From Glutinoglossum americanum (lineage: Eukaryota; Ascomycota; Geoglossomycetes; Geoglossales; Geoglossaceae): a stretch of 64,000 bases of DNA. Below, piece by piece: positions 598 through 35,349 of this stretch (positions are counted from its first letter, which is position 1; the number at the start of each line of letters is the position of its first letter). Location of the stretch: assembly GCA_020080175.1 (NCBI GenBank), contig JAGHQL010000146.1:1-64000 (forward strand), written 5' to 3'. The position numbers and the translations under genes were made by a program. The notes under the pieces are model-generated. The model worked only from the letters and a program-made list of their open reading frames with translations. It was not told the origin of the DNA and searched no databases.

Positions 598-605
598 ATC
601 ACCAG

Positions 606-11281: not shown

Positions 11282-11294
11282 CCGCTTCTAGCCG
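11282..11294. promoter_or_regulatory. Candidate Zn2Cys6 site, CGGCTA-N4-CGG (IVD/mccB promoter)
   Basis: The plus strand reads GCCGCTTCTAGCCGAA at 11281-11296, a direct repeat of CCG with a 7-bp spacer. The complement contains CGGCTAGAAGCGG. The same 16-mer, inverted, occurs upstream of mccA. The site lies 58 bp before the ivd ATG, and 43 or 82 bp before the two possible mccB starts. Its function is inferred from conservation and position. Confidence 0.6.
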
Positions 11295-11351
11295 AAGCTG
11301 GGTCAAGATAAACACCAAGGTTGTGAACACCGAGAAATCATCACCCTAACG

Positions 11352-12961
11352 ATGCGCCTCATTGTGTTCACTGCGATCCGTCGGGCCGCCGGATTTTCCA
11401 GATCGCGACCCGCGTTCTTGCATCAGCGTCGTGCTGTGTCAACGAGGCATCCGAAGGGTTTTGCACCTCCAGGTACAGAGGAACTTCAAGAATTACGGGA
11501 GCGAGTCCAAGAGTTCACCAGTGAGCCTCGCATGTAAAAATCGAACCTGAATTGGCTCTGAACGCTTGAATAGGACGTGAGATACCTGAGGAAATCGCTA
11601 CAACAACAGATCAGAGAAATGAATTTCCAATGGAGCTGTGGAAGAAGCTTGGTGAAGCAGGGTGGGTGCTGCGGAAGTATTCTCCTGGTGATCGCAAGCT
11701 CACATGCTCTAAAGGCTGCTGGGGGTTACTGTGGATGAGGATTACGGTGGCCTCGCCATGGGATACCAAGCCCACTGTATAGTGATGGAGGAAATAAGCC
11801 GAGCATCTGGTACCTCATCCGAACCAATAGACTTGACATTTTATTTACGAAGCTGGCGACTGATTTAGCTAGGTAGCATTGGGCTCTCATATGCCGCTCA
11901 TTCCCAATTGTGCGTGAATCAGCTTTCCCTGAACGGATCTACCCGGCAAAAGCAACGCCTACTTCCTGGCCTTGTATCTGGTGACAAAATTGGGGCGTTG
12001 GCTATGTCAGAACACTCCGCTGGCTCTGACGTAGTTAGCATGAAGGCAACAGCCAAAGCGGTAGATGGCGGGTGGATCTTGAATGGAACTAAGATGTGGA
12101 TCACTAATGTTGGTCCCTTGCCCATCTTGGCGCGGATTCGATGTCCACTAATAGCACATCATTGCAGGGACCAGACGCAGATTACGTTGTTGTCTATGCA
12201 AAGACGAATCTCCAAGCAGGCTCAAAGGGTATCACGGCGTTCATAGTGGAGAAATCTTTCCCTGGCTTTTCCTGCGCGAGAAAGCTCGATAAACTTGGGA
12301 TGCGGGGATCTAATACCGGTGAATTGATATTTGATAGCGTGTTTGTGCCCGAGGGAAATCTCCTCGGGGAGGTTAACGAGGGCGTAAAAGTTTTGATGGA
12401 AGGACTAGATCTTGAGAGGCTCGTTCTCAGCGCCGGGCCACTCGGGTAAGACTCCAGTGTGGCTAAGTATCGCAGTCGCTCACAGCCTCGACGTTTTAGC
12501 ATTATGCAAGCAGCGATGGACCTCGTTCTTCCGTATACTCATACCCGGCGGCAATTTAGCACACCTATTGCTCATAACCAACTAATCCAAGGTAAATTAG
12601 CCGACATGTATACCAAACTTCAGGCGTCCCGTTCCTATACCTACGCTACCGCGAAGGTAATTGATGAAGAAAGGACTATACCAACGAAGGACTGTGCTGG
12701 CGCGATACTCTATGCTGCTGAACGCGCTACAGAATGTGGCCTAGATGCCATTCAGCTGCTTGGAGGTAATGGGTATGTTAACGAGGTCCCTGCTGGACGA
12801 CTACTTAGAGACGCTAAGCTCTACGAGATCGGTAAGTCAGGCGGCTCAGTATCTAATAGCCTGAGGAGATGCTGACTGTGCTAGGTGCTGGAACAAGTGA
12901 GATCAGGAGAATAGTAATTGGGAGAGCTTTTAACAGGGCGTATGAGAACTACAATATTTGA
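11352..12961 (+). CDS. ivd: Isovaleryl-CoA dehydrogenase, mitochondrial
   Basis: FAD acyl-CoA dehydrogenase that oxidises isovaleryl-CoA to 3-methylcrotonyl-CoA, the substrate of MCC. It is spliced from about seven exons. It has an Arg/Ser-rich mitochondrial leader ([19 protein letters not shown]), [32 protein letters not shown], the FAD/substrate segment [45 protein letters not shown], and the IVD-specific [14 protein letters not shown], whose Glu matches the known catalytic base of IVD. Then follow [21 protein letters not shown] and the last exon, [17 protein letters not shown]. It ends at TGA 12959-12961. All expected blocks are present and in frame. It shares a bidirectional promoter with mccB. 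Confidence 0.93.
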
Positions 12962-13426
12962 TTAAGCGTAGCTCCCACATGTGAGCATACCGCTTTTGTA
13001 ACATAACACAGCTAGGCGGGGGCGGGTCTCAACTCAATTGGGTAAGCTAGCCCAATTCTACCGTCAACTGTTATTTCTCTCTTCACGGTGGCGGCGCAGA
13101 TCCTAGGGAATATTGATGGCCGAAATGGCTCGGCTCTGAAATCACCTTGAAGTGTCGCCGTGGTCTGGAAATAGATGTGTGACATAGGGGTCTTGGAAAT
13201 ACAAGCCAGGAACCCTAGTGGTCTTGCAAGTGTAATTGCCGTGATACGGACGCGTTATATAGGGCGGATCAATAGAAACGTCGCTGTTGTGTATATTTGG
13301 TGGATGCTGATACAAAGCAAATACATGCGATGGTGCGGTCTACCCTTGGTAATGCGAATTCCACTCTACCGCCGGAACAAAGAGGATATCCTATAGACCA
13401 CCTTCACTACAAGTAGCCCTCACCAC
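12962..13426. other. Convergent 3' spacer
   Basis: This separates the ends of ivd and the minus-strand gene at 13427-14443. I see no gene or repeat. Confidence 0.5.
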
Positions 13427-14443
13427 TCACTCCGCTTCTATGTTGCGTCCGTTGGATGAACCCTTTTTCTTACTCGTCCGGTCGTTCTCCTTTGGTTCTG
13501 GAGCCTTGCGTTTCTGACCGGCTCCACCGGCGTTTCTTGCTGATCTGGTTGTTGCGCGTGCCACCTTGGGAACATTTTCCGGAGGGCCCATTACCTTGCT
13601 GTTGGACTTCTTCATGATACCCTTGTCGGAAGGTCCTTCTGGCAGCGGAATTACGCTAAGTGCGCTATGAGGAACCCCGTTTTCTTCACCTCCAGCAATC
13701 GCCCTTGCATTGATTTCCTCGATAGGGAGGTGGGATCTAAGTCTCGCGCTCTTCCGAGCTGGGGTCTGTGTACTTCCCAGCGCAATATTGCTGGTGACTT
13801 TTACTGCATTCCTGACCTCTCCCCCGGCGGGCTTCGCTGTTGTTTTACTCTCTTCGCTTCTATGATTGGTATGGCTAGCACTCTGAAGTCTTTCTCTCCA
13901 GTCCTTCAACACTGAAACCTCTTCGGCTTCCTCGCTGTCGTGTAATAACGGCCTTTCCGGGCTTCCCTTTGCTCTCCAGATAACTATCGGTGCAACCAGC
14001 CCCACTTGAACTGCAGAGGCGTCTAAGGAGTCCCCAAGAGATAGACTAGGTGTTCTCTCCTCTCGTTTTCGCCTCTTTCGTCTAACACTGTCACTTATAG
14101 CTCTCTTCCTCTTTTCTCCCGGCTTTGGCGAACTCCGAATGCCATTGCCCTCAACTTTAGTGCTCTTCCGAGTATCGCCATCGTAGTAGTCATCTGAGTA
14201 GTTCTCCCAATCACTCCAAAACTCTTCCATCTCAAAATTTGGATCGATATCCGCCCAGACAGGCGAGTGGATTGTGTGTTCAGCTAGGTCATCGGCCCAA
14301 GCCGCCTGCGTCAAGTTAGCAACAGAACAAAGCCAAATTTCGGGGCAACAGTGCAGAACAGCTACAGAACTTACGACTCCGTCGTTTGGGCAGTCTTCAT
14401 ATTCCCAATATTCATCATCGAGGAAGTCTTCTTCATCCGACAT
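13427..14443 (-). CDS. Unrecognised acidic-then-basic, probably nuclear protein
   Basis: I do not recognise a family. It starts at a clear ATG (MSDEEDFLDDEYWEYEDCP). The N-terminal 90 residues are very acidic and aromatic (EEFWSDWENYSDDYYDGD). The rest is basic and low in structure, with nuclear-localisation-like clusters (KRKR, RRKRRKREER, KKKGSS) and repeated RKSARLRS/TTRSARN patches. Just after NDGV there is a good intron (GTAAGT ... GCTAAC ... GCAG, about 14302-14370). It is 69 nt long and stop-free, so the frame reads through whether or not it is spliced; splicing removes 23 residues. It sits between ivd/mccB and mccA, and its 5' end faces mccA. Confidence 0.75.
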   Translation of the reverse strand: MSDEEDFLDDEYWEYEDCPNDGVVSSVAVLHCCPEIWLCSVANLTQAAWADDLAEHTIHSPVWADIDPNFEMEEFWSDWENYSDDYYDGDTRKSTKVEGNGIRSSPKPGEKRKRAISDSVRRKRRKREERTPSLSLGDSLDASAVQVGLVAPIVIWRAKGSPERPLLHDSEEAEEVSVLKDWRERLQSASHTNHRSEESKTTAKPAGGEVRNAVKVTSNIALGSTQTPARKSARLRSHLPIEEINARAIAGGEENGVPHSALSVIPLPEGPSDKGIMKKSNSKVMGPPENVPKVARATTRSARNAGGAGQKRKAPEPKENDRTSKKKGSSNGRNIEAE

Positions 14444-15068
14444 GTCGCCTCCAACAACTTTCGCAACGCGACCCAGCGAATAGACGTCGGCAGTCGTCGA
14501 GAAACCGGCTTTTGCTCTAAAAGTAGTAGTGGAAGTTAACCCGAAATAGTAGGATCGGGGCGCGCCGTATTGTAGATTTTAGGCTAACCCGTCTCATGAA
14601 TCGCCCAAGAGGCCTACAGAGTAAATGCCAACCTGCGGGCATGCGGGGTTGTCAGAATCGTAGCTGTCCTACACCTTATAGGGATTGAAAAAGGAACGAA
14701 AATGCGAGATGTAGACAAGGATCAATTGAGATAATGTGACGAACCGGATGCGATCAGCAGGCGGGACATAAGCGGCATGAATGATGGTAACACAAACTAC
14801 ATGGGTGATTTTGTGATTTGGCCCATTTCGTGCATCTAAGCTTTGTGCGACTTGGTCGTAAGCTATCCAGCTCGACCACGCTTTGCTGGGGAGGTGTTCG
14901 GCTAGAAGCGGCCTACGATGCGTGCTATACATACTTGTAACCTCTCCCAGAAAGCAAACAACCATTCAACCTTGCTCAGAGACTACACCACGGATTTATC
15001 TGCTGAGCGGTCTCTACCCTAGGCTCCGTTTATCAGTCTTGCTCTTCTACTTGAATTTGGGCTTTCCA
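14444..15068. other. Divergent promoter region before mccA
   Basis: This holds the upstream regions of the minus-strand gene (14443) and mccA (15069). It contains the CGGCTA-N4-CGG word at 14899-14911. No gene is recognised; overlapping reading frames here have no family features. Confidence 0.6.
14899..14911. promoter_or_regulatory. Candidate Zn2Cys6 site, CGGCTA-N4-CGG (mccA promoter)
   Basis: TTCGGCTAGAAGCGGC at 14897-14912 is the exact reverse complement of the 16-mer between ivd and mccB. It lies about 157 bp upstream of the mccA ATG. A CGG direct repeat with a 7-bp spacer is a form bound by fungal binuclear zinc-cluster regulators. The regulator is unknown. Confidence 0.6.
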
Positions 15069-17535
15069 ATGTTGTTACGTCCAAAGTTATGCCGGTCCCG
15101 GCATGTGCGAGGTCTCATACTACCATTTGCGAATACCTCCTATCGGAGAAGCAATTCGACGCTGAGGGATGGGCTGTTCGATACTACTCCGTTGGCATCT
15201 GTACTAATCGCTAATCGTGGTGAGATTGCCCTGTAAGTGTGTAGAGTTCATAATAGCTTATTTGAGACTGACCCTTATGCTTCCTGTGCTTTATAGACGG
15301 ATCAATCGAACTGCGTTACAATACGGGATTCGGACCACAACAGTTTATACAGACCCGGACGCCCAATCGCAACATGCCCTCTGCACTCCATTTGCCGTAA
15401 ATATCGGAAGCCCCTCGGCGTATCTTGATGGTGACCGTATCATAAAAATTGCAAAACAAGAAGGTTGCTGCAGCATCCATCCGGGTTATGGCTTTGTATG
15501 TGCTCGGTCTTGATTGGAAGCCATACCCAGCACTGCAGATTTGGCTTACAAGTCTCCCGCGTGATATAGTTGAGCGAGAACTCGGCATTTGCAAAAAAAT
15601 GCACAGAGGAAGGTCTCATATTTATCGGGCCACCGTGGAAGGCCATAGAGGCGATGGGCAATAAGAGGCGAGTTTTGGTACGGAATGTCTTTGGTGGCGT
15701 TTTTGGTGCTAATATAGCAAAGTCAATCGAAAGACATCATGATCGCCGCTGGTGTTCCCTGCATCCCAGGATACCATGGCCCAAACCAAGACCCGACGTT
15801 CCTCGAGGCTCAAGCGGAAAAAATTGGCTTCCCTGTTCTACTCAAGGCCGTCAAAGGAGGGGGTGGGAAGGGCATGCGTATAGTTCGGGCGATTGATGAA
15901 TTCCACGAACAGCTCGTTTCTGCCAAATCAGAGGCCAAGAACTCTTTTGGTGATGATGTGATGTTGGTCGAGAAATATATCACTACTCCGCGACATATAG
16001 AGGTTCAGATATTTGCTGACAAGTATGGGAACTGCGTTTCTCTCGGGGAAAGGGATTGTAGCATTCAAAGGAGGCACCAAAAAATTCTAGAGGAATCGCC
16101 AGCTCCGCACTTGGCTCAGGATATACGGGAAGACCTCTGGGCTAAGGCTCGGGCTGCAGCTCTAGCTGTTGAGTACGAAGGCGCTGGAACGGTGGAATTT
16201 ATATTTGATAATGAGACTGGGAGATTCTTCTTCATGGAAATGAACACCAGATTGCAGGTTGAACACCCAGTGACAGAGATGGTTACTGGGTTGGATTTGG
16301 TACGATGGCAATTTACCGTTGCGGAAGGAGGGAGACTCCCTCTTACACAGGATGAAATCAAGACACGAATTGCGGAGAGGGGATGGGGGATCGAGGCTAG
16401 GATATATGCCGAGAATCCAGACATGTATGTCCCGAGCGAAACACCCACTACTTTCCCCTCCCTGCCTCTAGGTTCTCACCTCCCTCTAGGAATTTTACAC
16501 CTGACTCAGGTCGGCTTGTTCACATGCGAACTCCAAGTCAGACAGAAACTGTACGCATTGATGCCGGATTCATTGTCGGTGATCAAGTATCCTCCTATTA
16601 TGACCCGATGATATCAAAACTAATCGTCAATGCCCCATCACGGCGAGAAGCAATACAAAAGCTCGAGGCAGCTCTGAGTGAATACGAAATTGTGGGTCCG
16701 GCTACAAACATCGAATTCTTGAAGAAGCTCTGTCAGAGTCCCGCATTTGTTGCTGGTAATGTCGAGACAGGCTACATCCAGAAACATAGCGATGAATTGT
16801 TTGCTCCGGTTCTTCCTGTGGATGAGGTCTTCGCCCAAGCGGCGCTCGGGTTGCTGATGCAAGAAATGGCAGACGGTAAAGTGGAGGGTGTTTTTGGCTC
16901 GCTTGGTACAACCGTGGGGCCTGTGTTAGGCTTACAACGCCGTCACGTACCGTTTATTCAACCCTCTCCTAACGGTACGGGCGAGGCGGTGCAAATAGAT
17001 GTCGAGGTGAATCAAACCGGACCCGCTACTTTTGACGTGAGGGTGAATGATTCCCTCTATTCAAGCGTCACAAGCCGCTATGAAACCTTTTCCAGAGTTT
17101 TGACGAGTTTCTTTCCTCATACGCGACTGTCAACTACCATTGTCCGCAACGGCAACTCGGTAACAGTTTTTCATAAAGGGAAGCAATACCGACTAGAATG
17201 TGTGCTTCCAAATTGGGTTGAGAAAGCCCTGGGAGTCAAAGATGTGGCAAACAGTGTCTTGACACCGATGCCTTGCAAGGTTCTTCGCGTGGAGGTACGC
17301 GAAGGAGACAAAGTGACCAAGGATCAATCGTTGGTTGTAATAGAGAGCATGAAGATGGAGATGGTGATACGAAGCCCACAAGATGGAGTCATTTCAAGAG
17401 TTGTCTACGGAGAAGGAGTAGGTGCACTTTCTAAAACACTAGATGCCACCACGCTAGGTGCTTACATTTATCCAGGACATGTGTAAGGCGGGAACAGCTC
17501 TAGTAGAGTTTGCGGACAGCGAAGAGGCTTCATGA
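15069..17535 (+). CDS. mccA: 3-Methylcrotonyl-CoA carboxylase alpha (biotin) subunit
   Basis: Biotin carboxylase and biotin-carrier subunit of mitochondrial MCC. The start MLLRPKLCRSRHVRGL gives a basic mitochondrial leader. Then come the biotin carboxylase domain (SVLIANRGEIAL-RI, SIHPGYGF, LSENSAFAKKC, the glycine-rich ATP loop KGGGGKGMR, EKYITTPRHIEVQIFAD, RDCSIQRRHQK, EMNTRLQVEHPVTEM, RIYAEN), the YYDPMISKLIV segment, and a C-terminal biotinyl domain with the lysine in ESMKMEM. At least five short introns are inferred. The one after NKRRVL (about 15679-15731) restores the frame to QSQSKDIMIAAGVP and implies a few extra residues compared with the family. It ends ALVEFADSEEAS at 17533-17535. 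Confidence 0.92.
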
Positions 17536-18642
17536 GGTCGGCGAGGAGCTAAACTTCCATTGCTGTCATGTGAACGGCAGGACTATATGATAGAGAATGA
17601 CGGCACGGAAGGGCTAGAGCTTTCATGCAGAACATAGCGCAATCCTGGCCGGATTCACACTTTGAGATTGGTCTAATGACAGGTTTAGAAGATAAAAGAA
17701 GATATAACCTCCGAGATGGTATCTTTTTTAAGCTAGACATAGCGCATACACTATATGTATTCGTGGGCTCCGCGGGCCCTGGTCGCGGGGGGAGTCCGAG
17801 ACGGAATTTCGAGTATAATTGGTAAGCGCCGTGGGGATGGTTGGAGGAGTAAGGGGGATGGAAGCATTCGTAAACTGTCTATGTAGATGGGGCGCCTGAG
17901 TCAGAATAGAAGCTTGAGAAAGAATAGATGCGGCGACTATTCCATGCGAGCAGATTCTCCAGCTATTGTGAGGTCGACGCCAGCAGGAGCCAGTCGTTAC
18001 CCGTCATTTCCTTGTCGTGAAACAAGGGTGGGCGGTTGTCGATTGGGCATCCTCTGGGTATGGCTTTGCCGAAACGAAACGAAGTGAAACGACGACCCTA
18101 ATCTGACCCTATTGTCCTTCTTGTACCTCAGGGTGCAAAACACACACGCCTCTACCCTCCGCGGTGATATGTATATGCGCCAGTCTGGCGGAGGAGTGAG
18201 CCAATGAATGCCGTGTAACCAAACTAAAGTGAGAAAATAGCCCTGCAGCTCACCCTTGCTAGCCAATTGGGCGAGACGCGGGGCTTCGCGTGAGTTCCGA
18301 CATTTGCGTCATACTACCCCCGCGGCTTCCTACTTTTAACAAAAAGACCCGCTAGGTCAATCCTATAAAGATCGCCATGCTTTCACCACAGCTCTTTCTT
18401 TCCTTTCTGCCACAGTAGTCTGGACACTCTGAGCATTTCACACTTCAACGTTCTACATTCACGAGTCGTAACGCATTCATTCGACGCTTCGTACATATTC
18501 ACTACACCCCGCTCTGTGACATTATATACCGGAGAATTTCTTTTTTCGCCGAAAGCCCACTCCCCGATTTACTTCATTGATTGAAGGAAGAGAGGCCTCA
18601 TAATCGTAATCCATACCAACTTCGACATCAACAACAGCAGTC
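17536..18642. other. Intergenic; 5' region of the MARVEL gene
   Basis: No gene is recognised. Positions 18350-18640 look like a core promoter and leader: a TATA-like CTATAAAGA near 18362, then pyrimidine-rich tracts up to the ATG at 18643. Confidence 0.5.
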
Positions 18643-19248
18643 ATGGGATTTAGAGAATATAACCTATCGGCTGGAGGGTCCGTCCACATCATCCCCCGCG
18701 CCATCTTGCGACTCCTTCTGTTCGTCTTTGCGTTGGCCGTGTGCGGGCTCTACGGGACTGATCTCAGCAATGCGCATGAGCATGGCATTGGCGCGAATCC
18801 AAAATGGGTATGTTCTCACAAAGCCGCGGCCCTCGTTCCCGTTGTGGGTACTCGGATAAAGTTTGCTGACATTACCCTCAAGGTCTACGCTGTCGTTGTC
18901 GGCGGCCTCTCAGCCGTGACAAGCTTAATCTACGGGATCCCGCTTGTCAAATCCCACTTCCTCTTCGCCTGGGATGCGATCCTCTTGTAAGCCCTCCCGG
19001 GTGTCCTATGCGCGGAACCCTAGCTTATCTTGTTATATAGTATCCTTTGGATAGCTGTCTTCGGCATATTCGGCAAGATGTACATCCACGAGGACCCCGA
19101 AGGTAACGCTGATATCATGCGGATGAAGAATGCCGTGTGGGTCGACCTAGTCAATGCGATCTTATGGCTGATCAGCGGAATTTATGGAGCGCTGTCCTTC
19201 AGGAATCGCTCCCCCCGAAGCCATCACACTGGGCGGGCTACAGTGTAG
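18643..19248 (+). CDS. MARVEL-domain four-helix membrane protein
   Basis: Small tetraspan protein of the fungal MARVEL type, probably in the plasma or another membrane; its molecular function is unknown. There are three exons: 18643-18807, 18883-18986 and 19041-19248. Helix 1 is ILRLLLFVFALAVCGLYG, followed by NPKW-VYAVVVGGLSAVTSLIYG, FAWDAILF-ILWIAVFGIFGK and VWVDLVNAILWLISGIYG. This matches the family spacing, including a W-V-Y-A join across intron 1. Intron 1 is 75 nt, a multiple of three and stop-free; retention would insert 25 polar residues between helices 1 and 2. A second MARVEL gene lies 3.4 kb downstream on the same strand. Confidence 0.85.
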
Positions 19249-20112
19249 AGAGCTTTTGCAGGTCAAATGAGAGAGCCATAAAATGTTGGAGAGACAGCAG
19301 ATAGAATTGTACTCTCAATCAGCTAATGTATCACCACGACCAGATTTTGCTTATTTGGCGCCCCGTTTCAACATCTCTTCCATGGAGTAACGATTCCTAT
19401 GTTTTAGAGGGCTCGTACTCAATTTCCTTTTCCTTTTCAAGGCTTTCATGACGAACTAGATCCGCCAAGCGTTTTCATGTATAGGCAGAACGAATTGCAG
19501 TAATAACTGGAAAATTATGGTTGAGCCTAGCTTCCGGGACTTCCGGCATGTCTTAGAGCATGGCCCCTCCAGACGACAGACGTTGGAAGTTCATTCCCTG
19601 AATTTGGGCAACGCCTCATGTGATAGCCACGATGGCCGATGTGAGGAGTAATTAAAAAGCCAAAAAAGCTGCTGTTACACCCAGCTAAATCAGACAGCAT
19701 GAGGAGGAAGTAGGTGATGGATTCTATCAGCCTTTCTAGCAGCTGATATAGGTGGCGATTAATTAATCACCCTATCAGGCCAATCTACAAATCGCCCATT
19801 TCAGTATAAGCAAACATTACAGGGGCGTAGCTATGACAGCTGCTGACAACATTGCTGTTATCCATTCATCTCGTTACACCGTTGTTTGAATATGACCCGA
19901 GCGAGCTATAGAATGTTGAACTAATTATACGTATAAACCTTAACCTGATGGGATTAACAGTGTAGGAAATGTCCGTTAAAGTAAGGCAGGTGCGCCGTCT
20001 CCCGACCTAACGTGTAATGATCCGACCTGTAGAAAGCAACATACTAAAAGGGAAAGGCTCCTCTTCTCCGCTCTTTCAATTTCCTATGCTTTGAGTCCAC
20101 GGCTCGGCACGC
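19249..20112. other. Convergent 3' spacer
   Basis: This lies between the MARVEL gene and the minus-strand DUF4336 gene. No gene or repeat is recognised. Confidence 0.5.
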
Positions 20113-21010
20113 TCACAACTTTTGCACAGCCTGCAAATGCCACTCGAAAACTTTCCTAAATATCCCCTTCCCACCGCTCTCTATCACATCTCCGTGACAC
20201 ATGACGATCTTGTCAAAGTCCCATTTTTCGATTCTGGCTATGCTCCTGTTGAATGCTGGCCGGTCTTTGCTGCTGGAAGCATACCAGATAAACCGCTTCT
20301 GCCAGGTGGCTGCGCCGTAGGTGGAGTTTATTGAGGTGAAGAGTTTTGTTAGAAGTCCCGAGCCATTGGTCTCGCCCCCGCGAGAGTACTGTTCCTTGGC
20401 TGGGAGGTTGAACATCAGATCTGCTTCGATCAACGTTTTTTCTGGCTTGTAATTGAACACCAGCTCCTTGCCCACATGGCCATAAACGTACTCGTAATCA
20501 AATTCGGCGTCGAACTCGGGGTCAATTTTTAAGTCCTTGCAGTTATTCGGGGTGAAGACGTGAGAGAAAGGCACGGTTTCGTTTTTCTGGTGTGCGCGCT
20601 TTTCTGGCAGCCCACCCGGGCCAATGACCTTTGCTTCCGGGAACGCCTGGTGCCACGGCCCGAGAAACAAGTGGTGCTCCATGTCGGGGGCGATCATATA
20701 GCGCAAATTGCCCCCAAGGGCTGTGACGACGTCTTTGACCTCGGGAGTGAGTGCGACAGGCGAAAATACAGCAAGAGCGCCAGAACGTAGTCGGACTACC
20801 TGATTGTCAACATCCCGTCCGAAGAGCAGATATAGCCCTATGTAGCGTAGGCAGGGAGCGCATACCGATGGTTCCTCTTCCACCAATCCTGAGCTTTCCG
20901 AATCTCGCAAATGGCAATGAGAGGGTAGTAATGTTGGGAGAAAGTTTGCGGATGACCATCACATCGGACGCATTAGCTGGAGCGAGATTCGATGCATTGT
21001 CGGCAGACAT
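20113..21010 (-). CDS. DUF4336 (metallo-beta-lactamase-like) protein
   Basis: Two exons (20866-21010 and 20113-20795) are joined by a 70-nt intron. They give IGGRGTIVRLRSGALAVFSP, then VVTALGGNLRYMIAPDMEHHLFLGPW, with the DxEHH arrangement typical of this lactamase-like fold, then EAKVIGPGGLPEK, KELVFNYKPEKTLIEADLMF, and a late MCHGDVIESGGK. The protein is about 275 residues. The biochemical role of DUF4336 proteins is not established. The start at 21010 (MSADNAS) is chosen as the first ATG near the conserved region. An in-frame ATG at 21154 would add a 48-residue Arg/Ser/Leu-rich leader. Confidence 0.85.
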
Positions 21011-21154
21011 CGTTATGGAGCGAGTTAAACTCAGTGCGGAGGGTCGGCGGTATGTAGTTGGTATCAAGTTTCGACCGCTTAGGCGGAATGGGAGCTCTCT
21101 ATTTATTCTAGTCTCAAGAGTGTGGATAGACAAACAAGCAAGTGGAGCGGCCAC

Positions 21155-26193: not shown

Positions 26194-27030
26194 TAGCAGG
26201 CCCTCCCAGGCTCATAGGCCTCCCAGGGGACCGGTTAGTCCCCAGTATGGAGTATTGTGCCGCGGACTTGGCGCTGGCGATGAGGGCAAAAGTAAAATTG
26301 CGAATCGTACAGAGAACTCCCCTTGGAAAAAGAAGAAGCGATGGCAGTTGCACAGAGTGTGAAAGTACCTCATTAACTGAAAGAGATATTCCGCCGGTGC
26401 GCCTCATGCATGTAATAGCCGATACCAATGAGGGTTTCTAAGAAGTGCGACATGAAATAATATCGCTGTCGTCTTGTCTGCCTATCCGTTTTCATGCTGC
26501 TCGCTCAGCCAACCAAACAAATAGCTAAAAAGTATTCTCGACTTCCTCTCTATCCTTCGCTCGACACTGCAATGTTATAACACACTAGGCTTACGTGCCA
26601 TCAAGACTAGTTTTAGAGCTGCCACACACATGCGACCTACCATGATACTATCAACGTGCGCCGGTTCATCTCGTGGTAGGTGACGGGAGATCTATTTGGC
26701 ACTTTGTAGTTCGTGGACATCAACAAAAGCAATTAATATTTACATAGGCCATTCCACAACTCGACCAGTCCAGTTTCCGAACTATCATTGGGCCAAGATC
26801 AAAGCCGGATTAACATTCTTTTCCTGTCCGCGCTCCCAGCCCTGCCGCGATTCCACCTTTGCCCTCTAGAAATAAGCCTAAACTGTGACATTAAAGAGAA
26901 CCACTGTTTCTTTCCAAAATCCAAATTTCACCACCGATTTCAATGGATGCTAAAAGAGGTGAAAAAAAATAAATAATATATCGTGACGCTTTACGATGCC
27001 CATACCAGGTTATGCTTGGTGGAAAGGACC
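26194..27030. other. ssk1 upstream region
   Basis: No gene is recognised. The 5' leader of ssk1 is expected at 26194-26700. The rest is AT-leaning with nothing identifiable. Confidence 0.5.
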
Positions 27031-28007
27031 TCATTTCTGCACAAGGTCAAACGCAGTGCAGGCGATGAGGTTGATGATGATGACAACGACGAGGAAGCCA
27101 CCCGAACTATGATATAGAACACGTGCGTTACGCTGAAATCTCTTCGTCTTCACCTCTACCCCAATGACTCGCAGAAGGACTTCGCCAACCCCAACACGAA
27201 CGCACTGTGTAGATATCAGACCGACGAACAGCACCTATAATGAATAACGACTATGAAATGCAGAAACGCCTATGGCATACAGCACTGATTTGATGATTGG
27301 AATTTCAAGCTATCTCAAGGGAAAGTCAAGATGCTGCCAAGCACCACAATGTCCATATTTAAAGAAACGAAAGACATCCCTGAGAACGTTATGGCGTACA
27401 ATTGACGATATCATGCAAAGATATCTTGAGTTTGCCTCGTGGGGATTAGGTTGTAGGAGTACACGGATAGTAATGAGCGCAAGCAGCAGATAGTCATCCC
27501 CCAGTATCCCGTATAAGAAACATGAGGTGACGCGTGGTGTGAGGGAATGGCCAGCAGAATACATTTTTGGCGAAGGATGTTTTTCGGCGCAGTGGCGCAG
27601 CCACTTGCTGGTTTTGAAAGACCGCTGCGTAGAAATGGAAACAAGCACCAGCAACGACGGATGCAGAGATAAACGAAACAGAAAGGAAAAGACCATGGCG
27701 AAGAGGTATTGTAACACCTACGAATGCGCCCAATTCTTATTAAGCTCCGCAGCATTGCGACAAATCCGGAGAATCGCACGAATCCATGTAACATGCCCAG
27801 AGATGACACCCAGCAATAGAAGACAATTACACCCAGAGAAGACATGCAGAGGCTGCGAAACGCATTCCGCATGTCGCCGGACTCCGCGCGTGTGCCGGAA
27901 AGGAGCAAAAGAAAGCAACTGATGAACCGAATAAAATCGAGCCTGCACAAGAACACCTTGATCGCGCCGTCGATGAAACTCCGGATTTTTCCTAGCCCAT
28001 CATACAC
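27031..28007 (-). CDS. Possible multi-exon membrane protein, unresolved
   Basis: The minus strand has an ATG-led segment (MYDGLGKIRSFIDGAIK at 28007-27957) with a GTGTTC donor-like site after it. Then come several hydrophobic frames (for example around 27720-27500) and a terminal frame at 27234-27031 with a strong hydrophobic helix (GGFLVVVIIINLIACTAF). I could not join these into one protein by consensus splice sites, and I recognise no family. It may be a small membrane-protein gene or chance hydrophobic frames. Confidence 0.22.
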
Positions 28008-28049
28008 CGTAATTGCGAATGAGCGAAAAGAACCGATCGAAAAGCGCCT

Positions 28050-29873
28050 TCATCTCCCCATCATATAATCTGAAAATCCACCATTACCGTTGCCAATGAC
28101 TCCTGTGTTAACTGGAATTCCGCCCATAGGCCCTCTTAACCCATTCAAACCTTGGCCATTCATTCCTGCGTTACCATTAGGGAATGTTCCGGCCGTGGAC
28201 CCATTGATTGAGCTATTGGCCATAATATTCATTGAATTACCGTTCGTGGTCGAAGGCACAGGGAGGCCTGGTGGTGCCAATCCAGGAGGCGCATGAAGGG
28301 CAGTGGCAAACGGCTGGCCTGGTAGTCCGCCCATACCACCGTTCATGCCAGGCGGCCCACTCTGCGGGGTAGCTGGCGTGGCCAGACATGCGCCATTTGC
28401 TGGTTGGCCTGAGCGCACCCCTAATGGATTTTTCGAGAAACTAAGTCTGATTCCTCCCTTCTGGCTGTTAGATAGAGGGCGTCCGTAAAGTTCGTTAAGT
28501 GCCTTGGTGGCAAAGGAAACATCCTCAAACTCGACAAAGCACATTGGACCATTCTGTTTAGTCCTGTAGCAAAGCCTTCTGTATCCTCGCTGTTTGGAGA
28601 AGAGCGCTTTGAGCTCATCCTCAGAGGTATTGATGGGCAGGTTACCAACGTACAGAGTGTTACAAGGAGGATTTTGATCCGCTGGATTGACTGGCGGGTA
28701 ACTTGGACGTTGAAAGTACTGATTCGAGAGCTGATAGTTAGCATTCGGACCCATGCTGCCGAATCCCATTGTAGAGATCGCCGACGCCGGGGTTGGAAGG
28801 GTCGAACCAGGCATCGTCGGAGACGTCATAACGGGAACCGGCGGAGGGGCAATGTTCGTGGCTAGAGAGAGGCCGGCGAGGCGAGGTACAGGCAACTGCG
28901 GATTCGTAGTACGGCGCATTTGGCCTACAGCTCCTGTGTGGCCGTTCTTGGCATATGCGAGAGGGTCCTTCAACAGCTCTCCAGTTTCATCGTCCTCGAC
29001 GGAGTCATCATTGATGACCGACTTTCCAGAACGGACCCCATTTAGCTGGCCACCGATTGGAGATTGCGGAGAAAATAGATTTTGAAAGTGGGTGCTAGAC
29101 TCTGGCACGGGAAATTCGCTGCCAGTCATTCCACCTCCACCAGTAAATCCGTTAGGAGGGGAAATTCTCTCTAAGGGTTGGAAACCACCATTGAATCTGT
29201 AGGGTTGGCGATTGGCCTGACCATTTGATGAATTTGAAGATGAATTTGAACTAGACAGTCCGCGATTTACCGTCCCATCGTAGGTGTTTCGTCTTCCAGC
29301 ATGTTGCGCACCAGTCAAGACCTGAACAATAAGGTTGGCGTCGCCGGAGGAGTTTGGTTTTCCATCAAGGGCATTCCTGACCTCATGTGCTCCGGCAAGT
29401 GATTCAAATCGCGCGATAGCTGAGATAAAGCGTCCTTCTTCAGAGTGTTCTGGAGGCAGAATGTCGACACCCACAAAATCCTTCGCAAATAACAATAAGC
29501 TGCGAAGCTCTCTTTCGGATATGTTGCGCGGCAACCTATGAATGGCAACGGACGAGTATCCTGCGGTGCCGCCATTTGCGCTCGAGATATCGTTTTCACC
29601 AGAAAATGGCCGTATTGAATCTCGGTCGAACGGACTCATCTCTCCTATGGTCGACATGCCATAGGATGAAGTAGAAACAGGCGGTTGATGCGATTGACTA
29701 TGCGCAGGCACAAAGACAGCCGCAGATATTGCAGTTTGCGAAATCGCAGAATGCTTCGCCGTCGATGCGGATTGAGGTGGTGAGGAGGTTGAAGATGATG
29801 CTGACGTTGATTGATATGGATTACTTGAAGCAGATGGACTCGAGCCACCCGAAGTCATCGGCCCTCCGGCCAT
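28050..29873 (-). CDS. whi3: Whi3-type RNA-binding protein
   Basis: Single exon, 607 residues. This is the fungal homologue of Whi3, which binds cell-cycle and polarity mRNAs and can form condensates. The Ser/Ala/Gln-rich N-terminus is followed by an RRM-like segment at about 110-190 (YSSVAIHRLPRNISERELRSL, then GRFISAIARFES). After a Pro/Ser-rich linker, the canonical RRM at about 405-485 has RNP2 TLYVGNLP, RNP1-like GPMCFVEFEDV and QKGGIRLSFSKNPLG. The C-terminal tail is Gly/Asn/Pro-rich. The ATG at 29873 has an in-frame TGA two codons upstream (with AGC between), so it is a real start for this exon. The gene has an unusually long 3-kb upstream region. Confidence 0.88.
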   Translation of the reverse strand: MAGGPMTSGGSSPSASSNPYQSTSASSSTSSPPQSASTAKHSAISQTAISAAVFVPAHSQSHQPPVSTSSYGMSTIGEMSPFDRDSIRPFSGENDISSANGGTAGYSSVAIHRLPRNISERELRSLLLFAKDFVGVDILPPEHSEEGRFISAIARFESLAGAHEVRNALDGKPNSSGDANLIVQVLTGAQHAGRRNTYDGTVNRGLSSSNSSSNSSNGQANRQPYRFNGGFQPLERISPPNGFTGGGGMTGSEFPVPESSTHFQNLFSPQSPIGGQLNGVRSGKSVINDDSVEDDETGELLKDPLAYAKNGHTGAVGQMRRTTNPQLPVPRLAGLSLATNIAPPPVPVMTSPTMPGSTLPTPASAISTMGFGSMGPNANYQLSNQYFQRPSYPPVNPADQNPPCNTLYVGNLPINTSEDELKALFSKQRGYRRLCYRTKQNGPMCFVEFEDVSFATKALNELYGRPLSNSQKGGIRLSFSKNPLGVRSGQPANGACLATPATPQSGPPGMNGGMGGLPGQPFATALHAPPGLAPPGLPVPSTTNGNSMNIMANSSINGSTAGTFPNGNAGMNGQGLNGLRGPMGGIPVNTGVIGNGNGGFSDYMMGR

Positions 29874-30091
29874 GCTTCAAATGATTTTGCGAAAAGGACA
29901 CGGCTGGTCTCAATGTGACTTGTCGGAGAGTTGGTTCCGGTTAGAACCGAAACGCGTGTGGGACCAAGAGATAGTAGAACAAAGACCACCTGGAATCGAA
30001 AGAGCCTGATACGATCGTGAACAGCTCAGAAAAACAATGCGCGCCGAGAATTCTACATATGCGCTTGTATCAGTGAGTGATTGACAGGGCT

Positions 30092-30508
30092 CTACCAGAA
30101 AACAAAATCGCGCAAGATAGTTGATGAATGGAGTTTGGACGAACCTTGAGGGGAGCCGCGTTGCGCAGTGAAATTGTAGAAGATTTCTTCAGAATGCGAA
30201 CCAGAAGGCGCCGCGCGAAGACGAAGAATGGTTGGTACTTTCGGAAGGAAACTAGTTGCGTAGAATATCTGCGGTGCTGATCGAGCCTCCCAACTGCGGG
30301 TCAGGTTCGAGAGAGCAGAAGGTGATGAGTTGCGGCCGTGATTGTTGCGGGAGTGCGTGTGCGCGACGGCGGCGAGAGAGTTGTTCGGTGATGGGGTTTG
30401 CGAGTAGGACGATGTGCGGCGCGAGGGTTGATCCGTGGGATGACCAGTGGATAGCAGGCGATACCTTTTACCGACAGGAGATGCCTCTGCGGGACGGGAC
30501 TGGCCCAA
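30092..30508 (-). other. Upstream reading frame before whi3, 138 codons
   Basis: An ATG-led frame is rich in Ser/Asn/Arg, with a PSRRTSSYSQTPSPNNSLA-like stretch and a QIFYATSFLPKVPTILRLRA patch. Its composition is protein-like, but no family is recognised. The obvious donor CAAG|GTTCGT inside it does not join in phase with the whi3 exon. It could be a translated upstream ORF in the whi3 leader, a separate small gene, or chance. Confidence 0.25.
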
Positions 30509-32933
30509 GAATTGTTAATCTCTAATTTTTGCTTTTCCCCAGTTATTGCGTTGGGCCTCGCCGAATGCAATTTCGCTCTAGATCCACCCCGCGAAACAAC
30601 GGGAGGTCGATCGATTGGGTTCGTTCTGTTGGAATGTGCTTAGAAATTGCAACAACCAGGTACTAGTCTAGGTGGGTGGGAAAAGAGTGCGAGAGACCGC
30701 GAGAGACCGCAAATGGGTGGCGAGGTCGAAGGAGTGACGGACACACGGATTGTCAAGTAGACGATGCGAGAGGTAAGGCGCACGAGATAGCGCGGTGTAG
30801 CACAAGGGCCGATGATGCACGATCGTCGATACTCTAGCGTGACCGACAGGCGGGCTGGCACTGGGATTATTGGCTGTGTAGAAAAGGTTGGTGCGTCTTC
30901 GTAGGCAACTCTGGCAGCAGATGAACGAGCGAAACTGAGCTGGAGAGCTGGACGTGATGGAGAGGGGGGCAGCAACTACAGAGGCGAGAGGGAAGGGCAG
31001 GGATTTCAACGAGGTTCGTTGAATTTCGGTGGGGAAGCATCCGATCGGGTAATAGAGCATGGAAAGGAATGAACGACGGATGGGGATGGCCCTAACCTTA
31101 GCTAGCTCGGGTCAACGATGCTGATAGCTGGGTTGGGTTTCCCAGATCTAGGACGGCAAGCCGCGCCATATCGTACACCATATAGTCCATGGAATGGTAG
31201 AAAATAGTGGAGTTGCTCAATGCTCCACTCTATCATCGCACAGGGTACGCGCAAAGAGCTACGGAGCACTGATTGTATGTACATACGACTGCTCGTTGGA
31301 TGTTGTACATGCTGATATTATTACTTCATCAAACCGTTGACTCTTCTTCAGTCGTTGTCGTTCGCCCCACCCAACCCACACCCGCGCCATGAGCTATCCC
31401 ATCCTATCCTAGCTCGAGCTCCACAGCAGCGCGCGATTGAACTTTCTTTCAGTATCGCTTTGTTCAACCTGCACGTTGTGGCTTGGAGGGGCGAATCACG
31501 GTTGTTGAGTGGTGGACCCTCCGCAACCAAAACCCAAGATGGTTTCCAAGCACACACATCTCGGTTCCGACAAAGTCACCCCAGTCTTTTCCGGGCTGCC
31601 TCCTTGCAGTTCATCGTGGGTGCCAGCATCGTCACATGAGTTGTTGCCTTGAGCGTTGAGTGGCCGCAAGAAGGAAGCCATCACACGAAAAAGGGGAGGA
31701 TTTAAGCTCTATCCCGATTCCCCAGTGCCGGGAAATTCATCGACGAAATGATTTTCTCCGTTTGAATCCATCCCATCTGTCTGGTGTGCTCTGGGTGAGC
31801 CGCATGTGCGACCATCACCCAACGAACAAGACTGCGCGGGCACACCACCCAGGGTATGACTCAAACGCTATCCTGGTTATCCTGGCCACCTACCCTTTCT
31901 CCTTGACGGCGCTAGGGCATCCAATTGCTTATCGATACGAACTGGGCCTAGCACCATTAACAAAAAGCACTCTACAAAACGTTTCTTTTCGACACAGCCT
32001 GCGACACTCGGCTTCGGCTGTCTCAGCCCCGCACACTCCTTGGTCTCCCTGGAGCTCCGTACTCGAGAAAACTCGTCGAGGAAAACACGCTCTTTCTGCC
32101 AGCACCTTACTGACCGTGGCCTGGTTGGTCTATCCTTCGACATTCAACCTTTCACAAAAACTTAGGCGCTTAGAGCTGAGTGCCCATGCATGCGTACTTG
32201 GGAGACCTGAAATAGACTTATTTCGAGCTGCCGCATATTGTCACTGAATTTTCATTGTCACACTCGCGAACACCTCGATCAAATACTTCGGTATTAAGGG
32301 CGCTGCGCCCATGTGATGTCGACCCAACAGAATCGAGCAGGGGTGCCCAGTAAGGAGCCTTGCACTAGACCTTGGGTTGATATTAAAATATTTCATTTAA
32401 CTTGAGCTTCTCAATGCCGTCCAGTTGATTGGAGTTTCGACACAACAATACTTTGTGCTTCATCGAAATTCGGTGATTAGTCTTCAGCTGGGAATACACT
32501 ATGTAGGTAGTGTCACAGCTGAAGACTGATTGTCACTCTTTCAATAGCGGTCAAACTCCATGCCGAATCAAAAGATAGAAAGTTTCCGAGGCGCTGCAGG
32601 AAAATTGTTGCGTAGTTACAGCTTCGCACTCACGCTGCTTTTAAGTCGTTTGCACTTCTCTTCAAAGCTTTGCTGTTAAATACTATCGGGTCCCCAGCCT
32701 GCGATTTGGGGCCCGCCCACCAACTAGTCCCAGGGATCCCTCCCGGGAATACACCACTTGATGCCAGCGTAGCAGCTAGAGTGAAAAACGGTTATTATGG
32801 GGGGCTTTACGAACTAGCAGTTACATTGAGTCAGTACGAAGGCGTTTAGGCCAATATCTCCGTAGACTCGGGGAATTCACGCTCACCCTGCATATACAGT
32901 CGATCTGATTACTTAGGGCCCGAGTTATATTGG
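30509..32933. other. Long intergenic region, 2.4 kb
   Basis: No recognised gene. A 195-codon frame at 31660-32247 has no family features. CT/GA-rich stretches at 30650-31060 look like promoter or leader of the whi3 gene. A strong hairpin lies at 32479-32527. Confidence 0.45.
32479..32527. other. Strong hairpin
   Basis: AGTCTTCAGCTG (32479-32490) pairs perfectly with CAGCTGAAGACT (32516-32527). Inside, ACACTA (32496-32501) pairs with TAGTGT (32508-32513) around a 6-nt loop. It lies about 400 bp past the 3' end of the acyl-CoA synthetase gene and in the far upstream region of whi3. It could be a small-RNA hairpin, a tiny foldback element or a terminator-like structure. Confidence 0.6.
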
Positions 32934-35284
32934 CTACTCAAGTCCGTAGCCTTGCCGAACTTGCTGGATTCCAAGCTCCCTTAACTTGAATTTCTGTATC
33001 TTTCCGCTCGCAGTCTTCGGATAGCTATCGACAAAGAACACATACTTCGGGACTGTCGCCGTTAGCTGCAATTCAACAACCCCGACTAGAGATATGGGCA
33101 GACCAAGGTGATGGGACAGCTTATCCCTAACCCAATGTCTCACTTCACTTGCAGAGACCTTGGAACTTTTGTGGCAGATAACATATACTGCAACGACCTC
33201 ACCGTATCTTTCGTCCGGAAGCCCAACCACTGATGCCTCTGCAATCTCGGGGTGGCCGAAGAGACAGTTTTCAATCTCTAGCGGATGGATATTCTCTCCT
33301 CCTTTGATGATGATGTCCTTTATACGACTGGTAATCTGTATGTAGGGTCTTAGTCGCCCGGTGCCAATAAGAATGCAATCAGTATTCTCCCCACCTTAAT
33401 GTAGCCGTCGTTATCCATTTCTGCCTCGTCCCCAGTCTTTCGTTGATTAGTTAGTCGCCCGGAGCCCACATTACCTTTATTTACTTACGTGCATCCAGGT
33501 TTTCCCCTTATCATCAGAAACCAGGACCTCGGCCGTGCGGGCTGCATCTCTCCAGTAGCCTTTCATGACCAGATACCCCGAGACGGCCAGTTCCCCCCTC
33601 GCTCCGATCGGCAGGGTTTTTTTGCGGTCAGAGGGATCAACGACTTTCGCTCTACTCCAGTCAACATCTAGATTGACACCAGGTTCATTGGTGGTATGTC
33701 ATACTCCACATGGGGTAGAAGTCTTCCGACAGTTTCGATTCTCTTTTCAAGTGAATCGTCTGTCATTGTCATTGCGGACACAGGGCTCGTTTCTGTCATC
33801 CCGTAGCAGATAGCTATTAACCCGTTACCAACCGACTCTGAGTCTTTCTAGATCGGAGGCTACCCACTAAGCTCTGTGAGGTTAAGAACCCTATGAAGCT
33901 TTCTCATCAGTTCTGCCGGGATACTTGATCCTGCTGCAATTCCTGTCCTCAGAGACTGGAACCCCTCCGGTGATATAGTGCCATTCTGAAGAAGCTCAAG
34001 CTCGGCCACGAACATGGTCGGAACCCCATATAGCGCCGTGCATTTCTCTTCTTGAACAGCTTTTAATGTGGCAGCCGCATCAAAAGCCTCTGCCGGGAAA
34101 ACTATCGATGAGCCGTGCGTTGCAGTGGCCATATAGCCAAGGATGCATCCAAAGCAGCTAGGGCAGTTGAGCATTCATCTTCTTCGGACAAAAGAACAAA
34201 CTCACTGGAATAGTGGCGGTGGACAGCACACAATATCCTGAGGCGTCAATAACATCCTATCTCCAATGCTGTTGCCGTTGTTGAGGATTGAAGCATGGGT
34301 CAAACAAGCTGCTTTAGGCATGGACGTTGTTCCAGAAGTGAACTGGATATTAATTACATCATCTGGGCATAGGGTTTGACTGGGGAGTACTGTTTCTGAC
34401 TCTCCATCCATCAAAACTTGTTGGTATTTCCGGATAGCCTTCCAAGCACTGATACCAACCCGCCCGCTTGAATTGTCCACAACCACTACTTCCTTCAGGG
34501 ACGGGACAAGTTCCGATTCGAGCTTGCTGCTTTCGATCCCTGGAAGGATATCCCTAAGTAAAGCCTCATTCCGGCGGGGACTCTTTCGGGGCAAATTAGT
34601 CTCAGTAGAAATGATGAGATGTGAAGCATCCAGATGGGTAAGCGCGGCTACCACTTGAGCAGTATTGAAAGCTGGATTTAGAGGGACCTGTTCGTCTTGA
34701 GAAAAGGGTCGTTTGGGCACACAGCATAGCTTTGACGTACAAGTATCGCACCGAGCTTGAACAATGCATATGTTGCCTTTGAAAATTGTCAAATAGAAAT
34801 AATTGAGATTGTTAGATCTAAGGATTCCTACAGTAGCATACTCGATATTATTACCCAGCGACACGGCAACCCGAACCCCCTTCACCACACCAATCCTCGC
34901 TAAACCGCGTGCTAGGGAATCGCTCCTGCGGTTTAGCGCATCGTAGCTAAGCCGCTCATTCTGGTGCCGCGAAACGACCCTGGAAAAAACATAGTATGTG
35001 TGAAATTCCTTAACACGTGCCGCATCCAGCAGGAGAGAATGTTTTTCTTACGCGGTTCGATCGCCATATCTCGACACCACGGACTCGAAGTGCTCTCCGA
35101 CGGTAAGGTTCAACAAGGGTGGCTAGGCATTGATCCATCAGTGGTTCGCTGTCGAAAAATTGGGTTTGCTCTAGTTCACCTCGGATGGACCCTTGGCGTA
35201 GGATTCTGTGAGGAGGGGTCGACGCTGGGCGGGCCTCGCCGCGGAACAAGCGGCGGGTCCCAGTCGTAGCAGGGCGCGTCTCAT
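32934..35284 (-). CDS. Mitochondrial AMP-forming acyl-CoA synthetase (ACSF2-like)
   Basis: Activates a carboxylic acid with ATP and CoA; ACSF2-type enzymes act in mitochondria on medium or branched acids. The exact substrate is unknown. The start at 35284 gives an Arg/Ala/Leu-rich presequence (MRRALLRLGPAACSAARPAQ). Exons then join as KGPSE-PPLLNLTVGEHFESVV, SRYGDRTA-VVSRHQNERLSYD, and onward. Motifs: INIQFTSGTTSMPKAACLTH (ATP-binding A3, with Ser where Gly is usual), ICYGMTETSPVSAMT, VMKGYWRDAART, TGDEAEMDNDGYIK, RIKDIIIKGGENIHPLEIEN and a catalytic-lysine motif YPKTASGKIQKFKLRE. There is no C-terminal peroxisome signal (ends GYGLE). At least seven exons are inferred. A CGGCTA-N4-CGG word lies 53 bp upstream. 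Confidence 0.85.
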
Positions 35285-35336
35285 TTTTCGAGCTCTTTTA
35301 CACAAAGCAGAAAGCAACGAAGAAACCGTGGATGGC

Positions 35337-35349
35337 CGGCTATCGACGG
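35337..35349. promoter_or_regulatory. Candidate Zn2Cys6 site, CGGCTA-N4-CGG (acyl-CoA synthetase promoter)
   Basis: CGGCTATCGACGG lies 53 bp upstream of the acyl-CoA synthetase ATG. It shares all nine fixed bases (CGGCTA, CGG) and the spacing with the sites at the ivd/mccB and mccA promoters, but the four spacer bases differ. Confidence 0.5.

What the first reader, a model, noticed from the sequence alone, without database searches (positions are those of the whole stretch)
11282..35349. Shared promoter word CGGCTA-N4-CGG links ivd, mccB, mccA and a mitochondrial acyl-CoA synthetase
Seen directly: the 16-mer GCCGCTTCTAGCCGAA (11281-11296) in the ivd/mccB divergent promoter reappears exactly, inverted, at 14897-14912 upstream of mccA. 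A third site with the same nine fixed bases and spacing (CGGCTATCGACGG, 35337-35349) lies 53 bp before the acyl-CoA synthetase ATG. Scanning by eye I found no other match in the window. With equal base use, about 0.5 matches are expected on both strands of 64 kb, and all three fall in short promoters of mitochondrial acyl-CoA genes. Known: CGG direct repeats with a fixed spacer are a form of Zn2Cys6-factor site. Inference: an undescribed leucine/branched-acid regulon with its own zinc-cluster activator.
Basis: partly seen in the sequence, partly recalled or inferred. Interest (0 to 1): 0.85.

Follow-up and report, generated by a model that had tools for sequence, protein, structure and literature searches.

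The report
Shared switch site for branched-chain amino-acid breakdown
In the earth-tongue fungus Glutinoglossum, several genes that break down leucine and related amino acids carry the same short DNA word just before their start, which looks like the docking site of one zinc-cluster regulator, although which regulator binds it is still unknown.

Summary
In detail: CGGCTA-N4-CGG occurs exactly three times in the window (0.31 expected), 52-157 bp before the ivd, mccB, mccA and acyl-CoA synthetase start codons. Genome-wide it is not enriched (120 matches; 183 for the reversed control) and has no general promoter bias, so most copies are probably chance. It is nevertheless over-represented at this pathway. 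Of six further genes of branched-chain breakdown and its electron transfer, found by family search, branched-chain ketoacid dehydrogenase (BCKDH) E1-beta has the exact word (112 bp before ATG); E1-alpha and short/branched-chain acyl-CoA dehydrogenase have CGGTTA-N4-CGG (91 and 270 bp); BCKDH E2, HMG-CoA lyase and ETF-QO have none within 300 bp. ETF-beta, met while cataloguing copies, has the exact word at 112 bp. Three pyruvate dehydrogenase genes have none; 2-oxoglutarate dehydrogenase E1 has it at 314 bp. The geometry CGG-N7-CGG is the published AOD2/AOD5 (AcuK/AcuM) site, and candidate orthologues of both exist here, but the YTA core is missing from the sites I read at their classic targets. 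The LeuB site is absent. I conclude: probably a real branched-chain catabolic element of zinc-cluster type with unknown binding factor. Conservation in other fungi could not be tested.

The parts
11281..11296 (-). Site 1 in the 151-bp ivd/mccB divergent promoter; core CGGCTAGAAGCGG at 11282-11294 on the minus strand, 57 bp from the ivd ATG and 81 bp from the mccB ATG
14897..14912 (+). Site 2 upstream of mccA; core CGGCTAGAAGCGG at 14899-14911, 157 bp before the mccA ATG; the same 16-mer as site 1
35337..35349 (+). Site 3, CGGCTATCGACGG, 52 bp before the acyl-CoA synthetase ATG
9065..11200 (-). mccB, biotin-dependent carboxyltransferase (methylcrotonyl-CoA carboxylase beta by cluster position); 5' part and ATG read by eye, 3' end from the gene model
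   Evidence: Carboxyl_trans PF01039; gene models; ATG
11352..12961 (+). ivd, isovaleryl-CoA dehydrogenase, 7 exons, 424 aa
   Evidence: Best PDB matches are isovaleryl-CoA dehydrogenases, 510 bits against 294 for the best other acyl-CoA dehydrogenase; model identical over all 424 aa to a Glutinoglossum americanum protein
13427..14443 (-). Gene of unknown function between ivd and mccA (no Pfam match)
15069..17486 (+). mccA, biotin carboxylase / biotin carrier subunit (methylcrotonyl-CoA carboxylase alpha by cluster position)
   Evidence: CPSase_L_D2, Biotin_carb_C, Biotin_lipoyl; ATG read, checked
32934..35284 (-). Acyl-CoA synthetase (AMP-binding) with a mitochondrial-looking N-terminus; substrate not assigned
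   Evidence: AMP-binding PF00501; feruloyl-CoA and fatty-acyl-CoA synthetases best in PDB; gene model

Best explanation
The word is a cis-regulatory site, CGGYTA-N4-CGG (a direct repeat of CGG triplets ten bases apart), that joins genes of branched-chain amino-acid breakdown: BCKDH E1-alpha and E1-beta, isovaleryl-CoA dehydrogenase, both methylcrotonyl-CoA carboxylase subunits, short/branched-chain acyl-CoA dehydrogenase, probably ETF-beta and the window's acyl-CoA synthetase. Inferred mechanism: a dimeric Zn2Cys6 factor other than LeuB, not identified, binds it close to the start codon and activates the set when branched-chain amino or acyl compounds are the carbon source. Shown here: the sites, their positions, their over-representation at pathway genes, their absence at the three pyruvate dehydrogenase genes. 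Inferred: binding, activation, inducer, and that the factor is not AcuK/AcuM.
For: Exact word in ivd/mccB, mccA and synthetase promoters. Genes located by family search, not by the word: exact word 112 bp before BCKDH E1-beta ATG; CGGTTA-N4-CGG 91 bp before E1-alpha and 270 bp before short/branched-chain acyl-CoA dehydrogenase. Names rest on best PDB matches. Up to one mismatch within 300 bp: 3 of 6 such genes (3 of 5 without ETF-QO) against 1 of 51 predicted control promoters, Fisher p 0.0026 (0.0014); 0.007 for 3 of 5 against 3 of 51 if the two control promoters whose word was the bait are counted. CGGTTA-N4-CGG occurs 0 times in the 268 kb of window and word-centred loci. All 7 CGGYTA half-sites in the ten pathway promoters have CGG at N4 and at no other spacing from 0 to 12 (four of the seven were found through the word). 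Among all 6-mer/N0-12/3-mer dyads in those ten promoters CGGCTA/N4/CGG ranks first (5 of 10; 60 draws of ten from 60 predicted promoters never exceeded 4; four of the five were found through the word). PDH E1-alpha, E1-beta and E2, OGDH E2, glutaryl-CoA dehydrogenase, cytochrome-b5 acyl-CoA dehydrogenase and homocitrate synthase have no word within one mismatch in the upstream stretch held.
Against: No genome-wide enrichment (120 against 183 control) and no general promoter bias. BCKDH E2, HMG-CoA lyase and ETF-QO lack it. The C-to-T relaxation was made after seeing the E1-alpha and short/branched-chain acyl-CoA dehydrogenase sites; with the strict word only 1 of 6 tests is positive (chance 0.008). 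Two genes met as paralogues of the pathway enzymes carry the exact word although they are not branched-chain catabolic: OGDH E1 (314 bp) and 2-isopropylmalate synthase (ATG unsettled). Exact words also lie before a PDX1-like, a subtilisin-like, a PFK2-like and an unnamed membrane-protein gene. No binding, expression or cross-species data; one genome only.
Confidence: 0.6

Rival explanations
1. The sites are ordinary AIM / CCGN7CCG elements bound by the AcuK/AcuM (AOD5/AOD2) heterodimer, and branched-chain breakdown is one more arm of that known mitochondrial and gluconeogenic regulon.
For: Same architecture: AIM is CGGN7CGG and AcuK/AcuM bind CCGN7CCG. Two PAS_13 (PF24990) loci, candidate orthologues, are present (that this Pfam family is the ERT1/acuK PAS domain is recalled). 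One PEPCK gene has CGGGTAGAAGCGG, one base from the mcc site, in its first intron. OGDH E1, a TCA enzyme, has an exact word 314 bp before its ATG.
Against: The CGGN7CGG sites in the 0.5-0.7 kb read upstream of (or, for one, just inside) AOX and the two PEPCK genes here (CGGTAAAATTCGG, CGGATCTAGGCGG, CGGAGGGAAACGG, CGGGTAGAAGCGG) and the two acuF sites quoted in a review lack the YTA core that all 7 pathway sites have; whether these are working sites here is unknown. The N. crassa ChIP-seq table of 65 shared peaks names no ivd, mcc, BCKDH or ETF gene, though many entries are hypothetical.
Confidence: 0.27
2. Coincidence: three chance copies in one window, enlarged by looking for more.
For: Word frequency is random genome-wide. 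About one repeated 16-mer pair per 64 kb is expected, and a second pair exists. The motif was relaxed after the fact. Poisson chance of 3 or more in the window is 0.0035 before allowing for the choice of word.
Against: BCKDH E1-beta was examined because of its function and has the exact word 112 bp before its ATG; E1-alpha and short/branched-chain acyl-CoA dehydrogenase have near-exact words while the pyruvate dehydrogenase genes have none.
Confidence: 0.1
3. The sites belong to a LeuB/Leu3-like leucine-sensing factor that covers both biosynthesis and breakdown.
For: An exact word lies upstream of 2-isopropylmalate synthase, the leucine-biosynthesis gene (C279:2958-2970; L059:2885), though that gene's ATG is not settled.
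Against: The published LeuB site is the everted CCGN4CGG or CCGN5CGG; 0 of the 10 pathway promoters hold either.
Confidence: 0.03

Closest known systems
Alternative-oxidase induction motif (AIM), AOD2/AOD5 of Neurospora crassa; AcuK/AcuM CCGN7CCG sites of Aspergillus nidulans
   Same: Two CGG triplets in direct repeat with seven bases between; Zn2Cys6 dimer; promoters of mitochondrial genes
   Different: Here the seven bases begin with YTA in all 7 pathway sites; targets are branched-chain breakdown, which is not named in the Neurospora ChIP-seq table read
[quoted passage not shown]
   Same: Zinc-cluster type site, branched-chain amino-acid genes
   Different: Everted repeat, biosynthesis rather than breakdown; absent from all 10 pathway promoters
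Leucine catabolic cluster mccB-ivdA-mccA of Aspergillus nidulans (AN4687, AN4688, AN4690)
   Same: Same three genes clustered, with one gene number between ivdA and mccA
   Different: No shared promoter word is mentioned in the passages that I read
XlnR/AraR sites (GGCTAA, CGGDTAAW; recalled, from no call)
   Same: Extended CGGNTA-like half-site
   Different: None of the 9 sites compared has A after TA; pentose genes (recalled)

Membership tests
AcuK/AcuM (AIM) regulon | CGGN7CGG direct repeat | tested here: met
   All 7 pathway sites
AcuK/AcuM (AIM) regulon | Orthologues of both factors in the genome | tested here: inconclusive
   Two PAS_13 (PF24990) loci, C311 and C35, above the family cut-off; the family also matches one archaeal control genome, and a whole zinc-cluster motif was not resolved in either locus, so candidates only
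AcuK/AcuM (AIM) regulon | Canonical targets carry the same word | tested here: not met
   AOX and two PEPCK stretches hold CGGN7CGG but no CGGYTAN4CGG in 0.5-0.7 kb upstream
AcuK/AcuM (AIM) regulon | Published in-vivo targets include branched-chain catabolic genes | tested here: inconclusive
   None named among 65 shared peaks of N. crassa, one species, many hypothetical genes
AcuK/AcuM (AIM) regulon | Binding by the heterodimer | not testable with these tools
   Needs EMSA or ChIP
LeuB/Leu3 regulon | CCGN4CGG everted repeat | tested here: not met
   0 of 10 pathway promoters
Zn2Cys6 target site in general | Paired CGG triplets with fixed spacing in promoters of one pathway | tested here: met
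   N4 after CGGYTA in 7 of 7 half-sites, four of them found through the word
Branched-chain catabolic regulon | Every step of the pathway carries the site | tested here: not met
   BCKDH E2 and HMG-CoA lyase lack it; BCAT, methylglutaconyl-CoA hydratase and the valine branch were not searched for
Branched-chain catabolic regulon | Conservation in orthologous promoters | not testable with these tools
   No relatives of this genome are held

The most novel reading that the evidence does not exclude
A dedicated, undescribed Zn2Cys6 activator of branched-chain amino-acid breakdown, distinct from AcuK/AcuM and LeuB, reads CGGYTA-N4-CGG(CT) and couples BCKDH, acyl-CoA dehydrogenases, methylcrotonyl-CoA carboxylase and the electron-transfer flavoprotein in Geoglossomycetes and perhaps filamentous ascomycetes at large.
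Probability: 0.38. Interest if true: 0.65.

Novelty: new member of a known kind. Interest (0 to 1): 0.5.

Why it matters
A regulator of leucine, isoleucine and valine breakdown in filamentous fungi did not turn up in the listings of the searches that I ran (openly licensed papers only, two of the lists capped). A defined site in front of eight genes gives a bait for one-hybrid or DAP-seq screens and a direct test of whether the AcuK/AcuM pair or a separate factor runs the pathway.

Tried and rejected
Whole-genome enrichment of the word: rejected. Promoter bias of all copies: not seen. LeuB site: rejected. A pathway regulator encoded beside the cluster: no complete Zn2Cys6 pattern in the window's open frames and no zinc-cluster match among the 20 frames scanned; a motif split by an intron would be missed. 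ETF-alpha: no match to PF00766, and PF01012 found ETF-beta only, so it is untested. The gene models merged genes or missed strands (they missed OGDH); the third set found OGDH and gave ivd identical to the public protein, but all miss short first exons (mccA, mccB, ETF-beta, BCKDH E1-alpha, short/branched-chain acyl-CoA dehydrogenase), whose ATGs I read by eye and checked. For the same reason the control promoters contain some mis-started models, mccA, mccB and ETF-beta among them, and the 60 also some pathway loci. In one search several 300-bp slices are off by 1-2 bases and the synthetase distance is counted from the wrong end; the distances in this report are those. Not examined: the third PF02780 locus (C307), the pyruvate carboxylase promoter.
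Full report
WHAT WAS CLAIMED AND WHAT IS THERE. The word CGGCTANNNNCGG occurs three times in the window, where 0.31 are expected from dinucleotide-preserving shuffles and 0 of 100 shuffles reach three. The 16-mer shared by the ivd/mccB and mccA promoters is exact and inverted. The sites lie 57 bp from the ivd ATG, 81 bp from mccB, 157 bp from mccA and 52 bp from the synthetase (start codons read, distances). The organism is Glutinoglossum americanum (Geoglossomycetes): my spliced ivd protein is identical over 424 residues to a protein of that species on a contig of the same length, 69649 bases.

HOW SURPRISING IT IS BY ITSELF. In 25.77 Mb the word occurs 120 times, and 183 times when read backwards. 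Of the 47 copies that I could see with flanks (3 in the window, 44 outside), 19 lie in predicted exons, 2 in introns and 26 elsewhere; exons are 46% of those bases. So the word as such is neither enriched nor visibly promoter-biased. A repeated 16-mer pair is expected about once per 64 kb (arithmetic), and outside the repeat region at 1-6.1 kb the window holds one other such pair besides a simple tandem. What is unusual is that the three copies sit directly before functionally linked genes.

TESTS ON GENES CHOSEN BY FUNCTION. Twelve genome searches were available: one went to the word, eleven to families of pathway genes with their paralogues, of AcuK/AcuM and of their classic targets. BCKDH E1-beta (C296; 319 bits to a BCKDH beta subunit against 238 for the best chain named pyruvate dehydrogenase) has the exact word CGGCTACTATCGG 112 bp before its ATG. 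BCKDH E1-alpha (C82; 384 bits to BCKDH alpha against 175 for pyruvate dehydrogenase) has CGGTTATCATCGG 91 bp before its ATG. The short/branched-chain acyl-CoA dehydrogenase (C262; 438 against 318 bits) has CGGTTATCTGCGG 270 bp before its ATG. Three further genes of the set lack the site within one mismatch in 300 bp: BCKDH E2 (C146, none in 573 bp), HMG-CoA lyase (C168, no CGGN7CGG in the whole stretch with 1383 bp upstream) and ETF-QO (C240).

PARALOGUE CONTROLS. Without any word within one mismatch in the upstream stretch held: PDH E1-alpha (C24), PDH E1-beta (C201), PDH E2 (C18), OGDH E2 (C157), glutaryl-CoA dehydrogenase (C9), cytochrome-b5 acyl-CoA dehydrogenase (C20), homocitrate synthase (C35). 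With the exact word: OGDH E1 (C63, 314 bp before the ATG) and 2-isopropylmalate synthase (C279, ATG unsettled). Not read: pyruvate carboxylase promoter, third PF02780 locus. These names are my reading of the translations on top of the family match.

COPIES FOUND WHILE CATALOGUING. ETF-beta (C68; PF01012; 224 bits to an ETF beta chain) has the exact word CGGCTATACACGG 112 bp before its ATG. Of the 44 copies outside the window, those within 500 bp of a start are at ETF-beta, OGDH E1 (314 bp), a PDX1-like gene (277), a subtilisin-like gene (261), a PFK2-like gene (404) and an unnamed membrane protein (368) (the last four named by eye from translations). ETF-beta is the only one of these within 160 bp. 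In all, 49 of the 120 copies were looked at (these 47, C279 and C296); 71 were not.

STRENGTH OF THE PATHWAY SIGNAL. Within 300 bp and up to one mismatch, 3 of 6 function-chosen genes carry the word (3 of 5 without ETF-QO) against 1 of 51 predicted control promoters: Fisher p = 0.0026 (0.0014); if the two control promoters whose word was the bait are counted, 3 of 5 against 3 of 51 gives 0.007. From the measured one-mismatch rate of 0.048 per 300 bp, 3 or more of 6 has probability 0.002; with the strict word, 1 of 6 has probability 0.008. The control starts are automatic and some are wrong (see Tried and rejected). CGGTTAN4CGG does not occur in the 268 kb of window and word-centred loci. In the ten pathway promoters (the six, ETF-beta, and three of the window) every one of the 7 CGGYTA half-sites has CGG at N4. 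Counting all 6-mer/N0-12/3-mer dyads without a hypothesis, CGGCTA/N4/CGG is the most widely shared (5 of 10 promoters), and 60 draws of ten from 60 predicted promoters never exceeded 4. In both of these checks four promoters had been found through the word, so they are consistency checks rather than independent tests. The bases after the second CGG tend to be CT: CGGCTY at ivd/mccB, synthetase, E1-beta and E1-alpha.

WHAT BINDS IT. Two CGG triplets in direct repeat with seven bases between are the AIM of Neurospora AOD2/AOD5 and the CCGN7CCG site of Aspergillus AcuK/AcuM (passages of PMC5295593, PMC11373862 and PMC12719309; part 1 of the ChIP-seq section of PMC5295593 with its Table 3). Two PAS_13 loci are candidate orthologues here. 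Against their being the factor: AOX and the two PEPCK genes hold CGGN7CGG without the YTA core, the two acuF sites quoted in a review also lack it, and the Neurospora ChIP-seq table names no branched-chain gene. For it: one PEPCK gene has CGGGTAGAAGCGG, one base from the mcc site, in intron 1, and OGDH E1 carries an exact word. LeuB sites (CCGN4CGG or CCGN5CGG; passages of PMC8262921 and PMC6221358) are absent from all ten pathway promoters. I therefore favour a separate Zn2Cys6 dimer but leave AcuK/AcuM open.

LITERATURE. The mccB-ivdA-mccA cluster is known in A. nidulans (AN4687, AN4688, AN4690; passages of PMC4117967). Searches for a regulator of leucine or branched-chain breakdown in fungi listed none that I recognised as such; two searches showed 15 of 40 and 12 of 183 papers. 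The one paper that searches listed, a Magnaporthe review, speaks of IVD in leucine catabolism and of a LEU3 factor of biosynthesis in the passages shown (PMC10055536). Passages of PMC2939540 and PMC11373862 gave no such regulator. The library holds only openly licensed papers, so this is weak evidence of novelty. Suzuki 2012 and Chae 2007 were not read (one of the latter is not held); what I say of them comes from the papers that cite them.

LIMITS. One genome, no fungal relatives, no expression or binding data; gene starts partly read by eye; motif relaxed from C to T after two sites had been seen; the mcc gene names rest on domains plus cluster position.

Noticed in passing
window 1-6100: Many shared 16-mers in direct and inverted order; a repeat-rich contig end.
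   Followed up: no
L042:2439 (C63:56538): Exact word 314 bp before the start codon of 2-oxoglutarate dehydrogenase E1, which may link the site to the TCA cycle.
   Followed up: partly
L059:2885 (C279:2958): Exact word upstream of 2-isopropylmalate synthase, the entry to leucine biosynthesis; start codon not settled.
   Followed up: partly
G000 C97:9002-10654 and C31:9008-10757: Two PEPCK genes; the C31 copy has CGGGTAGAAGCGG in its first intron, one base from the mcc site. C97 also holds a non-coding CGGCTAGAAGCGG about 3 kb beyond the PEPCK match.
   Followed up: partly
window 35326-35349: A second, overlapping near-copy (CGGCCATCCACGG on the minus strand, one mismatch, 35326-35338) abuts site 3.
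   Followed up: no
window 13427-14443: Gene of unknown function between ivd and mccA; AN4689 would hold the same place in A. nidulans by its number.
   Followed up: no
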